6,349 nucleotides of DNA, from assembly GCA_001507935.1 (NCBI GenBank), contig LGET01000092.1, forward strand, positions 1 to 6,349. The letters run 5' to 3'. The stretch is from Thermococcales archaeon 44_46. GTDB lineage: Archaea > Methanobacteriota_B > Thermococci > Thermococcales > Thermococcaceae. Within the stretch, counting starts at the first letter, position 1. Each line of letters opens with the position of its first letter. The notes beneath the pieces were generated by a model. It did no database searches. It was not told the DNA's origin and saw nothing but the letters and a program-made list of their open reading frames with translations. The position numbers and the translations under genes are program-made. Shown here piece after piece: positions 1 to 6,314 of this stretch.

Positions 1-1047
1 AACAACACTGGAATAGAGTTCCCAGAAACCCTTGAGTATGTAAAAGAAATTAAACAGGAGCTTGAGAAAAGAAACATAAAATTTATCGTGGCTGATGCTG
101 GCGATGCATTCTGGAACTCTCTCAGCGTTTTTTCACCCCCGGGAAGAGACTATAGATGGTGCTGCAAGGTTACAAAACTGGGCCCAATAACCTTAACGAT
201 AAAGGAACACTACTCAAATGGTGTCCTGATGTTCGTCGGCCAGAGAAAGTACGAGAGCCTGCAGAGATACAAGCAGCCCAGAGTGTGGAAAAATCCATGG
301 GTGCCTAACGAAATTGGAGCCTCTCCAATATTTCACTGGAACGCCCTCGAGGTATGGCTCTACATATTCTCCCGTAAGCTGAAATACAACCCCCTCTATG
401 AGAACCGTTTGGACAGAATTGGTTGCTTTATGTGTCCAAGCTCTTCCCTAGCCGAAATTCAAACGCTAAAGGAAGAAAAGCCGCAGCTGTGGGAAAAATG
501 GGAGAGTGAGCTTAGGAAGTGGAAAGAACGCTTTGGAATGCCAGAGGAATGGATAACCTACGGCTTCTGGAGGTGGAGGCAGTTAACTAAAGGACAGAAG
601 GCCATTGCAAAGGAACTTGGAGTAAAGATTCCGGAAAAACGGACATGGGAACCTATAAGATATTCGCTTGAAGAGAAAGATGGAGAGTTTATTCTCAGAA
701 TAAACACGAGAATAATCCTGAAAAGAATCAAAGAAGTAGCCCCGATATTGGGTGAAGTAAGCGAAGATAAAAGGTCCGTAAGGATAAAAACTATAGTGTT
801 TACGGAGGAAGAGGTTAGGGCAAAGAGCAGAGAAGATGCTATAAGGGCATACTACCTAATAAAGAGGGCATATGAGTGTGTTGGGTGCGGGGTTTGTGTA
901 GGAAAATGTCCAGAAAATGCTTTAAGAATAAACCCCCATACAAAAAAGATAGAGGTTGATTCAGCGAGATGTATTCACTGCGAGGAGTGTATGGAGGTAT
1001 GTCCACTGTTAAAAATAAAAAATCCTCAAGAAGGAAGTCAGCTTTAA
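1..1047 (+). CDS. PAPS/APS reductase-family protein with C-terminal 2x[4Fe-4S] ferredoxin domain (5' truncated by window edge)
   Basis: The frame is open from base 1, so the start and the PP-loop that binds the nucleotide lie outside; 348 codons are visible. Numbering from the first visible codon, N2-T10 (NTGIEFPET) matches the conserved post-PP-loop segment of sulfonucleotide reductases, and G80-Q-R-K-Y-E-S-L-Q-R89 matches their G-x-R-x-x-E-S-x-x-R motif. The pair C54-C55 and the pair C142/C145 are 86 residues apart. This is the CC-X(~80)-CxxC arrangement that holds a [4Fe-4S] cluster in APS reductases. After about 150 further residues comes a ferredoxin domain with two CxxCxxCxxxCP sets (C293, 296, 299, 303 and C324, 327, 330, 334). 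Known: this family reduces adenylyl sulfate or a related compound. Inferred: electrons enter through the fused ferredoxin. I do not see the usual C-terminal ECG[LI]H active-site cysteine motif, so the substrate is uncertain. It ends with TAA inside the next gene. Confidence 0.9.
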   Translation, partial: NNTGIEFPETLEYVKEIKQELEKRNIKFIVADAGDAFWNSLSVFSPPGRDYRWCCKVTKLGPITLTIKEHYSNGVLMFVGQRKYESLQRYKQPRVWKNPWVPNEIGASPIFHWNALEVWLYIFSRKLKYNPLYENRLDRIGCFMCPSSSLAEIQTLKEEKPQLWEKWESELRKWKERFGMPEEWITYGFWRWRQLTKGQKAIAKELGVKIPEKRTWEPIRYSLEEKDGEFILRINTRIILKRIKEVAPILGEVSEDKRSVRIKTIVFTEEEVRAKSREDAIRAYYLIKRAYECVGCGVCVGKCPENALRINPHTKKIEVDSARCIHCEECMEVCPLLKIKNPQEGSQL

Positions 1048-3297: not shown

Positions 3298-3927
3298 ATG
3301 TACCTCATAGCGTTTGATTTAGAAGGAACCTTGGTAAAATCCAAATCAAGCTGGGTTGAGCTTCACAAAAAGTTTGGTACGTGGGACAAAGGGAGAGAAT
3401 ACGCCGAGAGATTCTTCGCTGGGGAGTTTGACTATGCAACATGGGCAAGGTTGGACGCTTCTCTCTGGAAGGGGAGAACGAAAGAGGAGATTATGGAATG
3501 GGCAAATTCAGTTGAGTATTTTGAAGGTGTGGAAGAGCTTTTTCGATTCCTGAGAGAGAGGAACTTTAAAATTGCAATAATCAGCGGCGGCCTTAAATGC
3601 CTTGCCGAGAGAATAGGGAGAGAGCTTAAGGCCGATTTTGTGTATGCAAACGAGCTTGTCTTTGACGAAAAAGGCAAGATAACCGGAGAAGTCCTTCCAT
3701 GGGTGGACTTCAGAAACAAAGGAGATATATTGCTCGAGCTTAAAGAAAAGCTCAGGCCGAAGCTAACCATAGCTGTGGGTGATGGGCACAACGATATAGC
3801 CATGTTCAAAGTTGCGGATGTGAGCATAGCAATTAACCCCCACGAGGGCGTTAAAGGGGATTACCTCGCAAGAGACCTATATGAAGTGATGGAGATCATC
3901 GAGAAAATTCTGAAAGAAAAAGGGTAG
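3298..3927 (+). CDS. HAD-IB family phosphatase (phosphoserine phosphatase-like)
   Basis: The product is 209 residues long, with the four HAD motifs in order. Motif I is F6-D7-L8-E9-G10-T11-L12, where D7 is the expected nucleophile. Motif II is IISGG with S96. Motif III is K141 in RNKGD, and motif IV is G161-D162-G-H-N-D166, which binds magnesium. The region between motifs I and II (about 15-80) is the helical cap typical of the phosphoserine-phosphatase branch. The acid/base position two residues after the nucleophile is Glu rather than the usual Asp, as in ThrH-type HAD enzymes. The reaction is hydrolysis of a small phosphomonoester; phosphoserine is plausible but unproven. GGAGGG at 3286-3291 lies 6 nt before the ATG, and only 1 nt separates it from pcm. 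Its TAG stop overlaps the 3' end of an antisense C/D box RNA. Confidence 0.88.
   Translation: MYLIAFDLEGTLVKSKSSWVELHKKFGTWDKGREYAERFFAGEFDYATWARLDASLWKGRTKEEIMEWANSVEYFEGVEELFRFLRERNFKIAIISGGLKCLAERIGRELKADFVYANELVFDEKGKITGEVLPWVDFRNKGDILLELKEKLRPKLTIAVGDGHNDIAMFKVADVSIAINPHEGVKGDYLARDLYEVMEIIEKILKEKG
3912..3921 (-). terminator. Possible T-rich terminator of the C/D box RNA
   Basis: On the minus strand this reads TTTTTCTTTC, 7 nt after box D of the guide RNA. Archaeal transcription often stops at oligo-T tracts. It lies antisense to the last codons of the HAD gene, so the A-rich codons may be there for coding reasons alone. Confidence 0.4.
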
Positions 3928-3928
3928 G

Positions 3929-3976
3929 TCAGAGAAGGGCGTGTTCATCATAATCAGCAAAGCAAAAGTTCATCAT
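3929..3976 (-). ncRNA. C/D box sRNA (2'-O-methylation guide)
   Basis: Read on the minus strand, the order is box C ATGATGA (3976-3970), a 12-nt guide ACTTTTGCTTTG (3969-3958), box D' CTGA (3957-3954), spacer TT, box C' ATGATGA (3951-3945), a 12-nt guide ACACGCCCTTCT (3944-3933) and box D CTGA (3932-3929). All four boxes are perfect and both guides have the 12-nt spacing typical of archaeal double-guide RNAs. Flanking GGG (3979-3977) can pair with CCT (3928-3926) as a short terminal stem, giving the C/D kink-turn. Such RNAs assemble with L7Ae, Nop5 and fibrillarin and direct ribose methylation of the target base paired to the fifth guide base upstream of D or D'. Predicted targets are the middle G of CAAAGCAAAAGU (D' guide) and of AGAAGGGCGUGU (D guide), in both cases the fifth base. 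I could not place these in an rRNA or tRNA from memory. The ends of the mature RNA are probably a few bases beyond the boxes. Confidence 0.87.
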
Positions 3977-4005: not shown

Positions 4006-4015
4006 ATTTTTAAAA
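4006..4015 (-). promoter_or_regulatory. Probable TATA box for the C/D box RNA
   Basis: The minus strand here reads TTTTAAAAAT, just past the stop of the prepilin peptidase gene. Its centre is about 34 nt upstream of box C, so transcription from about 3985 would give a short leader before the guide RNA. Alternatively the RNA could be processed from the peptidase transcript. Confidence 0.45.
4007..4011 (+). terminator. Possible oligo-T terminator of the pcm-HAD transcript
   Basis: TTTTT on the plus strand is the first five-T run after the HAD stop, about 80 nt downstream. It would let the HAD transcript end before running far into the convergent peptidase gene. There is no hairpin, which is usual for archaea. 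Confidence 0.35.
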
Positions 4016-4016
4016 T

Positions 4017-5132
4017 TTAAAGCCCGATGCTTTTTAGCACGAGCCACCAGAATAAGTCGCCGTAAAACACTGATATCAAGAAGCCCAAAAATAAAGCCGG
4101 TGCAAAGGGCATTGCGTTTCTGACAAGAAACTCATTCTCCAGTGCTCCTTCGTTCACAAGAGCTTTGAGGGTTTCTAGATCCTCTTTTTTGAGACCTTCA
4201 GCCGTTGGCGAGGCGATTAGTTTGTCGTATTCAACTCTCAGCGCATTTAGGTCGAGAGTCCTTAAAGCCCGAACAAGCTTGTCAAAGGAACTTTCCCTGT
4301 CTCTGTAGATTTTGCCGTCCTTTTCATATATCCACTCGCCGAGGATGTCCCATTCTTTGAGTTCGTCAACAGTAACTCTTTTTGTCAATACTTCCTCTCT
4401 TAAAACCTTCACAAGGGAGAAGAACACTTTAAAGGCATAAAATGTTGCGGCAAGTTTCAAATAGCTGTAAATGATTTCTGGAGTCTCAAAAGCACCGTAG
4501 GCAAAAAGCAGTATCCCAACAACATCTCCGACCTTTTGCAGTTTTGCTAAGATAGCTATCGTTATTGCCCATATCAAAACCCCAAAGTGGAGAGGAAGGG
4601 CTTCCCCAACAATTCCGAGAACAACAAAAGCCGCGGATACCCAGAGGGCGACTTCAAAGGGTTTGGGCCATTTATCGAGGAAAACCTCTTTCAACCGGGT
4701 GGTTCTTCTCCTTACCACTAACACTGCGAGGGAGTAGAAGAAGATAAATGGAAACACCGCAAGTATGCTGTTAAATAGGAGTGTTATGCTGTGCAAGGGA
4801 TATCTAGCCGCATACGGGGGGACTATCTTCGCATAACTTGATGCATATGGGAAGAGAGCCGAGTAACCCATTAAGATAACAACATCTCCACTTGCCCAGC
4901 CTCCCATGAGATAGAGCAAATAACCCAACAAAAATCCGATGGCGAGTCCTATTAATCCAGAAAACGCGTAGAAAAGGTCATGCTTTACGGCAAGTCCATA
5001 ATAAAGGTAATACAAAACCCCAATTCCAGCAATTGGAAACACATGTTTGTCCTCTATAAAGCCGGTTTTGATATCGGTGTAAGAGGTTAGAATTCCCATT
5101 ATAACCCCGAGAGCTATCAAAAGGAACTCCAT
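4017..5132 (-). CDS. Archaeal prepilin peptidase (A24 aspartic family) with type II C-terminal domain
   Basis: The 371-residue polytopic membrane protein has hydrophobic segments near residues 1-18, 32-48, 53-75, 84-96, 115-140, 161-178, 182-197, 203-240 and 343-366. The two catalytic aspartates of the A24 (TadA/PibD/FlaK) family are recognisable: D20 in SYTDIKTGFIEDK and D83 in GGWASGDVVIL, corresponding to the GxGD or GxHyD motif, here reading A-S-G-D. A soluble, charged stretch at about residues 245-335 before the last helix resembles the archaeal type II C-terminal extension of these peptidases. It cleaves the basic leader from class III signal peptides of pilins at the cytoplasmic face of the membrane. 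The gene starts 9 nt after a mini-pilin gene, with a full Shine-Dalgarno match. Whether it acts on archaellins too cannot be judged here; an EppA-like pilin role fits the neighbour. Confidence 0.9.
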   Translation of the reverse strand: MEFLLIALGVIMGILTSYTDIKTGFIEDKHVFPIAGIGVLYYLYYGLAVKHDLFYAFSGLIGLAIGFLLGYLLYLMGGWASGDVVILMGYSALFPYASSYAKIVPPYAARYPLHSITLLFNSILAVFPFIFFYSLAVLVVRRRTTRLKEVFLDKWPKPFEVALWVSAAFVVLGIVGEALPLHFGVLIWAITIAILAKLQKVGDVVGILLFAYGAFETPEIIYSYLKLAATFYAFKVFFSLVKVLREEVLTKRVTVDELKEWDILGEWIYEKDGKIYRDRESSFDKLVRALRTLDLNALRVEYDKLIASPTAEGLKKEDLETLKALVNEGALENEFLVRNAMPFAPALFLGFLISVFYGDLFWWLVLKSIGL

Positions 5133-5401: not shown

Positions 5402-5743
5402 ATGAAAGTGTACAGATTATATGTTAGGGATGAATATCTTGAGATGATAAAAAGCGGGAAAAAGACCATAGAGGTTAGAGCGGCATATCCACAGCTGAAA
5501 GACATCAAGCCCAAGGATAAAATTTTATTTAACAACGAAGTTCCTGCAGAGGTCATCTCGGTCAAAAAATATGAGACTTTTAGGCAGGTTTTGAGAGAGG
5601 AATCGATAGAGAGGATTTTTCCAGATAAGCCCAGCTTTGAACAGGCTGTAAAGAGGTTCCACAATATGTATCCAAAATGGAAGGAGAACCGCTATGGGGT
5701 AATTGCCATAAAATTCCGCCTCCTGAAACCAAGGAGGGAATAA
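5402..5743 (+). CDS. ASCH-domain protein, single domain
   Basis: The 113-residue protein is essentially one ASCH domain, a PUA-like beta-barrel. The family signature G-x-K-T-x-E-x-R is seen as G19-K-K21-T22-I-E24-V-R26. It is followed by a [22 protein letters not shown] strand region (about 36-57), a helical insert (about 58-90, with [15 protein letters not shown] and [13 protein letters not shown]) and the closing strand [16 protein letters not shown] proteins are thought to bind RNA or modified nucleosides, and some bacterial members hydrolyse N4-acetylcytidine; the substrate here is unknown. ATG 5402 was preferred over the in-frame ATG 5285. The longer form would add 39 residues that run across the promoter region and antisense to the mini-pilin, and it would lose the fit to the domain start. 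GGGAG at 5395-5399 is close to the start. The stop is 1 nt before the next gene. Confidence 0.88.
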
Positions 5744-5744
5744 A

Positions 5745-6314
5745 ATGCGGAATCTAAAGTTCGATGGGAGATACAAGGACTTGCTCCTCAGCGGGAAGAA
5801 AAACGCCACGGTGAGGGTAGGCAAAGTTAACTTAAAGCCCGGGGATGAAGTTCTTATCCATGCGGGAGGTTATGTTCTTGGAAAGGCCAAAATAAAGAGA
5901 GTTGAACGAAAAAAGGTTTCCGAGCTTACTGATGAAGATGCCATTAAAGATGGGTTCAACAATAAAGAAGAGCTTTTGGAGGCTCTTAAAGAACATTACA
6001 GGAACTTAACCCCGGATACAGAGGTAACGGTTGTTGAATTCGAGTTCACAAAGCTGCTGGATAAGCCTATATTGTCAGCAGATTTTCCCTATGAGGGCAA
6101 CAATCCAATCGAGATAGCGGAGCTTGCACTGAAACACCTGAAAGATTTAAGTTTTGAGGAAATTGCGCTGTTGAAGCTATTCCTGCAGTCAGGCAGTCTT
6201 AGGAAAGCGGCATACAAGCTTGGAGGGCTCAACAAAAGATATAAAATCAGAGAAGTGTTGAGGAAAGCTTATGAAGAGCTTAAGAAGATGGGCATTATGG
6301 AGCCGAAATTATGA
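5745..6314 (+). CDS. ASCH-domain protein with C-terminal helical (HTH-like) extension
   Basis: The product is 189 residues long. Residues 1-103 form a second ASCH domain, with G17-K-K19-N-A-T22-V-R24 as its signature, LKPGDEVLIHAGGYVLGKAKI strands (30-50) and a helix pair (about 59-88), closing with TEVTVVEFEF. Residues 105-120 look like a linker. Residues 121-189 are predicted helical and include G150-SLRKAAYKLGG-161, which resembles the first helices of a helix-turn-helix. The highly charged helix KIREVLRKAYEELKK follows. A nucleic-acid-binding role for that part is inference; it might instead be a dimerisation domain. GGAGGG at 5733-5738 lies 6 nt before the ATG and the gap to the preceding ASCH gene is 1 nt, so the two are one operon. 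The proteins differ enough in the signature to suggest distinct substrates rather than a recent duplication. Confidence 0.87.
   Translation: MRNLKFDGRYKDLLLSGKKNATVRVGKVNLKPGDEVLIHAGGYVLGKAKIKRVERKKVSELTDEDAIKDGFNNKEELLEALKEHYRNLTPDTEVTVVEFEFTKLLDKPILSADFPYEGNNPIEIAELALKHLKDLSFEEIALLKLFLQSGSLRKAAYKLGGLNKRYKIREVLRKAYEELKKMGIMEPKL

What the first reader, a model, noticed from the sequence alone, without database searches (positions are those of the whole stretch)
3929..3976. C/D box guide RNA between two convergent genes
Four perfect boxes (ATGATGA, CTGA, ATGATGA, CTGA) with two 12-nt guides and a 2-nt internal spacer are seen on the minus strand. This is the canonical archaeal double-guide layout, and chance occurrence of all four boxes at the right spacing is very unlikely. 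It lies in a gap that a gene caller would leave blank.
Basis: partly seen in the sequence, partly recalled or inferred. Interest (0 to 1): 0.72.

Follow-up and report, generated by a model that had tools for sequence, protein, structure and literature searches.

The report
Stripped-down snoR9 methylation guide RNA
This stretch is the likely gene of a small RNA of a known family, predicted to direct methylation of two sites in the large ribosomal RNA of heat-loving archaea; here it stands without the second guide RNA that is joined to it in most relatives, and its score falls below the cut-off that standard annotation uses.

Summary
It is the C/D half of Rfam snoR9 (52.6 bits, cut-off 90). This half is found in 58 of 61 family genomes, with both 10-nt guide cores unchanged in 58 of 58. 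The cores pair perfectly with 23S rRNA in all 16 genomes read, around E. coli G54 and U224. The likely job is 2'-O-methylation of these sites; RNA and methylation were not tested.

The gene is less ordinary. In 40 of 61 genomes it sits directly behind the H/ACA guide Pab21; none of the 13 genomes of the window's genus has that half, and other lineages lost or broke it. Between the same two convergent genes the sRNA lies on one strand in 40 genomes and on the other in 9, needing at least three reversals on an RpoB tree; in the 9 genomes of the Pyrococcus genus it lies elsewhere. A known kind of RNA, in a solo variant, in a slot that flips.

The parts
3929..3976 (-). box C/D double-guide sRNA core (C box to D box), homologue of the C/D half of Rfam RF00065 snoR9
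   Evidence: sequence; RF00065 52.6 bits, E 3.3e-10; model R1 62.8 bits, E 3.1e-17 (the window is one of R1's 30 training rows)
3970..3976 (-). box C, ATGATGA
   Evidence: sequence
3958..3969 (-). D' guide ACUUUUGCUUUG; core CUUUUGCUUU pairs with 23S AAAGCAAAAG; predicted target G aligned with E. coli U224
   Evidence: 23S of relatives
3954..3957 (-). box D', CTGA
   Evidence: sequence
3945..3951 (-). box C', ATGATGA, after a 2-nt spacer (3952-3953)
   Evidence: sequence
3933..3944 (-). D guide ACACGCCCUUCU; core CACGCCCUUC pairs with 23S GAAGGGCGUG; predicted target G aligned with E. coli G54
   Evidence: 23S of relatives
3929..3932 (-). box D, CTGA; 1 nt from the HAD stop codon (3925-3927)
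   Evidence: sequence
4006..4015 (-). TATA-like box TTTTAAAAAT, directly after the peptidase stop codon and about 30 nt upstream of the GGG before box C; predicted promoter of the sRNA
   Evidence: sequence; a loose TTT[AT][AT][AT] match 15-42 nt before the RNA's first module in 43 of 50 loci scanned, no control run; transcription not tested
3298..3927 (+). HAD-family hydrolase, convergent neighbour
   Evidence: PF00702, PF12710; matched beside the sRNA in 49 of 49 loci outside genus g2
4017..5132 (-). archaeal type IV prepilin peptidase, co-directional neighbour
   Evidence: PF06819, PF01478; matched beside the sRNA in 48 of 49 loci outside genus g2

Best explanation
Window 3929-3976 (minus strand) is the likely gene of a double-guide box C/D sRNA, homologous to the C/D half of Rfam's snoR9, that is predicted to direct fibrillarin to 2'-O-methylate two G residues in domain I of 23S rRNA. 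Shown: the four boxes, the homology, the unchanged guide cores in 58 of 58 loci, and the perfect 10-bp complementarity of both cores to 23S rRNA of relatives. Inferred: transcription from the TATA-like box at 4015-4006, folding into K-turn (C/D) and K-loop (C'/D'), assembly with L7Ae, Nop5 and fibrillarin, and methylation of the nucleotide paired with the fifth guide position before each D box (aligned with E. coli G54 and U224). In 40 of 61 family genomes the same RNA sits directly behind the H/ACA guide Pab21; here that module is absent, so the predicted promoter would start the C/D RNA directly. The slot between the HAD and peptidase genes has likely been reversed in place at least three times in the family, so the RNA's function does not seem to hang on which neighbour it is antisense to.
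For: Four boxes at canonical spacing, no chance matches. RF00065 match over the whole C/D part. Of 101 genomes, 58 of 61 in the family have a strong R1 match and none of the 40 outside; the best outside is 22.9 bits. Cores unchanged in 58 of 58 (49 of 51 loci by regex; L035; 8 of 8; the other non-match, L072, is an HgcE H/ACA locus). Both cores match 23S in 17 of 17 sequences from 16 genomes, whereas shuffled cores find a perfect partner in 16S or 23S in only 345 and 481 of 20,000 trials. P. abyssi makes the composite transcript (PMC4652768, passage seen: 230,449-575, H/ACA at 230,517-575); one search finds the H/ACA half in G018 at exactly 230517-230575.
Against: No RNA-seq, methylation or pull-down data for this organism were available. 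In the window's own assembly 23S was found only from model position 556 on and 16S not at all, so the targets were read in relatives, including its sister in the tree, G002. G060 has lost the guide with an empty slot and still has both 23S target sequences, so conserved targets alone do not prove guiding and the guide is dispensable there. The RNA on its own folds no better than shuffles: 192 of 200 fold at least as well; that this is usual for C/D sRNAs is recalled.
Confidence: 0.93

Rival explanations
1. It is a cis-antisense regulator or a 3'-end element of one of the neighbouring genes, and the guides' match to 23S is incidental.
For: The D box lies 1 nt from the HAD stop codon here, and in many relatives the sRNA overlaps that stop by 7 nt. 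In T. kodakarensis 16 of 17 antisense snoRNAs include the 3' end of the complementary gene (PMC4247193, passage seen).
Against: In 9 genomes the RNA faces the peptidase gene instead of the HAD gene, and in the 9 of genus g2 neither gene lies in the stretch read around it, yet both guide cores stay identical. The variable bases are the guide edges, the spacer and single box positions.
Confidence: 0.04
2. It is a decayed remnant of the composite snoR9 locus that is no longer expressed or used.
For: The H/ACA half is absent throughout the genus, and other lineages show a broken H/ACA (G017, G037) or a fully empty slot (G060). In the genus D' has a one-base change in G010 and G011, and C' in several.
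Against: In all 12 genus genomes where the element was found, both guide cores, box C and box D are unchanged while the spacer and C' drift; the 13th, G004, is 77% complete. A TATA-like box stands about 30 nt upstream.
Confidence: 0.03

Closest known systems
Rfam RF00065 snoR9 / Pab21 (Pyrococcus, Thermococcus)
   Same: Same C/D layout and identical guide cores; same HAD-peptidase slot in the loci outside genus g2.
   Different: The family model and the P. abyssi transcript carry a 59-nt H/ACA guide (Pab21) at the 5' end; it is absent here, and the match stays below the gathering score (52.6 against 90).
Archaeal box C/D double-guide sRNAs in general (e.g. Rfam sR12, sR9, sR5)
   Same: Box layout, guide length, short D'-C' spacer.
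   Different: Other guides; the below-cut-off matches to them here rest mainly on the shared boxes (alignments).
H/ACA guide Pab21 alone
   Same: Partner on the same transcript in P. abyssi (PMC4652768, passage).
   Different: No match in the window or, at E 0.1, anywhere in its genome assembly, which is 79% complete.

Membership tests
archaeal box C/D sRNA (double guide) | boxes C, D', C', D in order with guides of about 10-14 nt | tested here: met
archaeal box C/D sRNA (double guide) | guide complementary to rRNA or tRNA with the target at the fifth position before D/D' | tested here: met
   both cores, 23S rRNA, 17 of 17 sequences of 16 relatives; own 23S 5' region not found; tRNAs not scanned as targets
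archaeal box C/D sRNA (double guide) | conserved in relatives | tested here: met
   58 of 61 family genomes, also inverted or away from the neighbours
archaeal box C/D sRNA (double guide) | expressed RNA bound by L7Ae, Nop5, fibrillarin; target methylated | not testable with these tools
   no RNA data for this organism
Rfam RF00065 snoR9 | reaches the family's gathering score (90 bits) | tested here: not met
   52.6 bits
Rfam RF00065 snoR9 | 5' H/ACA module (Pab21) | tested here: not met
   no R3 match in the window or own genome assembly
Rfam RF00065 snoR9 | 3' C/D module with the two snoR9 guides | tested here: met
   alignment
cis-antisense regulator of the HAD gene | antisense relation to the HAD 3' end conserved in relatives | tested here: not met
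   not present in 18 of 58 loci (9 inverted, 9 elsewhere)

The most novel reading that the evidence does not exclude
The HAD-peptidase intergenic slot is an invertible guide-RNA cassette: a promoter-plus-RNA unit that recurrently turns over between two stop codons, sheds its H/ACA half and can leave the slot altogether, which would be a concrete case of the mobility of archaeal C/D genes that a 2021 review says remains to be discovered.
Probability: 0.3. Interest if true: 0.55.

Novelty: new variant of a known kind. Interest (0 to 1): 0.33.

Why it matters
The guide itself is a known family, so its presence will not surprise a specialist. Two things are useful. First, Rfam's snoR9 model joins two RNAs with different jobs; at its cut-off 38 genomes are found, so 20 of the 58 with the C/D part fall below it. 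Second, the family is a small natural experiment: one C/D guide with invariant cores, with and without its H/ACA partner, on either strand of one slot, elsewhere in the genome, and missing from one single-contig genome (G060). That makes directly testable whether C/D and H/ACA guides on one transcript depend on each other, and how such genes flip and move; [quoted passage not shown]

Tried and rejected
A pattern search for a replacement H/ACA guide with Pab21-like pocket letters was dropped as uninformative: in the six genus genomes it gave no clear excess over the reversed control pattern, and an excess of about 1.5- to 2-fold only in the three g3 genomes. Three weak R3 hits outside the snoR9 locus (G001, G036, G015) are HgcF, Pab91 and HgcE, not displaced Pab21; the other weak ones, in genomes that have Pab21 in place (G022, G033, G036, G046, G049, G052), were not examined. 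The first H/ACA model, R2, had a misplaced basal helix and was used in no search; R3 replaced it. My scans for the Pab21 target did not single out a site: one search found none, and a 16S GGAA-U-U-GGCGGG site (E. coli U920 by alignment) was among several with equal or higher scores; it is only a guess. The sigma-70 and terminator scan does not cover archaeal promoters and found nothing. Whether the window's genus lost the H/ACA half or never had it is not settled: holding the genera with it together as one clade is not rejected (AU p 0.142, 29-row tree).

Literature limits: the searches that ran cover open-licence PMC papers only; searches used the phrases 'h aca' and 'box c d' or 'c d box', which matched nothing in the papers listed. 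I found no paper there on the solo form or the inversion. Two papers recalled by DOI (on P. abyssi H/ACA sRNAs and on Pyrobaculum C/D families) are not held and were not read; of the papers cited I saw only passages.

Full report
1. Observation. On the minus strand the window reads GGG-ATGATGA-ACTTTTGCTTTG-CTGA-TT-ATGATGA-ACACGCCCTTCT-CTGA-CC from 3979 to 3927. The exact arrangement, with up to 3 mismatches allowed, occurs once and in none of 200 shuffles; a looser pattern (R at the first C/C' base, guides 9-14 nt, spacer 0-12 nt) occurs once in the window and in 0 of 3000 shuffled windows. The gap between the HAD stop and the peptidase stop is 89 nt.

2. Identity. Rfam scanning with permissive thresholds gives RF00065 snoR9 at 52.6 bits, E 3.3e-10, with near-identity over the C/D part and most of the first half of the model skipped. 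The gathering score is 90, so a scan at that cut-off reports no snoR9 here. In P. abyssi the RF00065 locus is one transcript with the H/ACA guide Pab21 at its 5' end and the C/D guide behind it (PMC4652768, one passage seen). RF00065 matches in 58 of 101 genomes searched, all 58 in the window's family f1, 38 above the cut-off; among 14 control genomes only M. jannaschii rings, below the cut-off.

3. Distribution. I built a sequence model of the C/D part (R1, 30 sequences) and a structure model of the H/ACA part (R3, 11 sequences). R1: 58 of 61 family genomes at E below 1e-12; the other three (G004, 77% complete; G024, 78%; G060, 99%) have only weak matches. Among the 40 genomes outside the family the best match is 22.9 bits. 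R3: 40 of 61 family genomes at E below 1e-6, in each case ending 0-3 nt before the C/D match. The remaining 18 with C/D are: 12 of the window's genus g1, G015 (g4), G016 and G020 (g5), G056 (g3), and G017 and G037 (g6). In G037 a recognisable but broken H/ACA remains (26 bits, 7 of 18 model pairs marked as not pairing); G017 shows the same altered stretch in sequence and only a 13-position match. That f1 is Thermococcaceae and g2 Pyrococcus is inferred from these and from G018, whose H/ACA coordinates equal those printed for P. abyssi; that G003 is T. litoralis and G036 T. kodakarensis is recalled from genome sizes.

4. Guides and targets. Both 10-nt cores, CUUUUGCUUU and CACGCCCUUC, are unchanged in 58 of 58 loci (49 of 51 by regex, L035, 8 of 8; the other non-match, L072, is an HgcE H/ACA locus). 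The loci were found by Rfam and R1, not by these exact cores. What varies is the guide edges, the spacer and single box positions. The cores are perfectly complementary to 23S rRNA AAAGCAAAAG and GAAGGGCGUG, about 150 nt apart near the 5' end (domain I, recalled), in 17 of 17 sequences from 16 genomes (9 sequences, 8). Two further genomes, G015 and G020, gave no 23S match, and the window's own assembly lacks that region. Shuffled cores find a perfect 16S or 23S partner in 345 and 481 of 20,000 trials. By the rule of the fifth nucleotide before D/D' (stated in PMC7994747, passage), the predicted methylated residues are G's that align with E. coli G54 and U224.

5. Promoter. A TATA-like TTTTAAAAAT at 4015-4006 follows the peptidase stop codon and lies about 30 nt before the GGG preceding box C. 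In a loose scan, 43 of 50 loci have TTT[AT][AT][AT] 15-42 nt before the first module, whether that is H/ACA or C/D; G001, G005, G008, G009, G029, G038 and G056 do not. This fits a model in which absence of the H/ACA half leaves the C/D RNA at the start site. It is inference: the scan had no control, the start of the H/ACA module was set by a rule of thumb, and the region is AT-rich. The review PMC7994747 reports a conserved TATA-like motif for only 20% of archaeal C/D genes in six species (passage).

6. The slot that flips. I read all 58 loci with the HAD and peptidase proteins. HAD matches in 49 of 49 and the peptidase in 48 of 49 loci outside g2 (in G046 only HAD, so its orientation rests on that gene). 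In 40 (12 g1, 1 g5, 7 g6, 20 g3) the sRNA is on the peptidase strand with its D box next to the HAD stop; in 9 (7 g3, G015, G020) it is on the HAD strand with its D box next to the peptidase stop; in all 9 of g2 neither gene matches in the stretch read, about 1.5 kb on each side (0.5 kb on one side in G040). The distances roughly mirror each other: the D box lies -7 to +21 nt from the HAD stop in 39 of the 40 loci of the first form, and 2-18 nt from the peptidase stop in the 8 measured loci of the second. The exception is G034, where the HAD frame runs on across the sRNA to 247 aa. On a tree of RpoB from 59 genomes (57 family, 2 outgroup; SH-aLRT support only) the seven g3 genomes with the second form make one clade (96%), and at least 3 reversals are needed in all; the H/ACA state, with broken counted as absent, needs at least 6 changes. 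Deep branches among genera are weak, and an AU test on the 29-row tree does not reject one clade for the three genera with H/ACA (p 0.142). So loss or breakage is clear for G017/G037, G056 and G060 but open for the window's own genus. How a slot turns over is not known.

7. Loss. G060 has neither half; its HAD and peptidase genes end within a few bases of each other, and its 23S still has both target sequences. In G024 the sequence read after the HAD gene also lacks the sRNA, in an assembly that is 78% complete.

8. Function. The most likely function is guiding two ribose methylations near the 5' end of 23S rRNA, perhaps also helping to fold it. The cis-antisense reading is weakened because the antisense partner differs or is absent in 18 of 58 loci while the cores do not change. 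Decay is weakened by the unchanged cores, box C and box D in the 12 genus genomes that have the element, though D' and C' vary in some. None of transcription, RNP assembly or methylation was tested.

9. Novelty. The RNA belongs to a known kind and its C/D homologue is already in Rfam. The solo form, the repeated loss of the H/ACA half and the in-place reversal were not found in the open papers searched, which leave out most subscription papers.

Noticed in passing
G044, G053, G054, G059 (L079, L157, L078, L158): The D'-C' spacer of the sRNA is expanded from 2-4 to 14-21 nt of GC-rich sequence, in some with inverted-repeat-like letters, as if the K-loop were becoming a stem.
   Followed up: no
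L060 (G001), upstream of box C: About 43 extra nt between the peptidase gene and the sRNA compared with its sister G010 (91 against 48 nt), ending in CCGC-loop-GCGG-ACA; no match to the Pab21 model worth the name.
   Followed up: partly
L020 (G034): The HAD reading frame runs on across the antisense of the sRNA to 247 aa instead of about 208; read-through or an assembly error.
   Followed up: partly
own genome contigs C106:8290-8321, C136:3113-3172, C150:375-407 and others: Further three-box C/D-like candidates in the same genome (15 hits with overlaps and the window's own two counted, 1 in the reversed control); C136 has two that overlap.
   Followed up: no
control genome Methanocaldococcus jannaschii: A sub-threshold RF00065 match; which half it matches was not examined.
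   Followed up: no
window 5402-5743 and 5745-6314, +: Two adjacent ASCH-domain proteins in tandem.
   Followed up: no
window 1-1047, +: A PAPS-reductase-domain protein with a C-terminal 4Fe-4S ferredoxin domain, cut off by the contig end; the next ORF overlaps its 3' end.
   Followed up: no
L014 1685-1742 and L009 2769-2826: In two genomes of the Pyrococcus genus a second C/D sRNA (RF00095) lies 58 nt and about 1.1 kb from snoR9, on the opposite strand.
   Followed up: no
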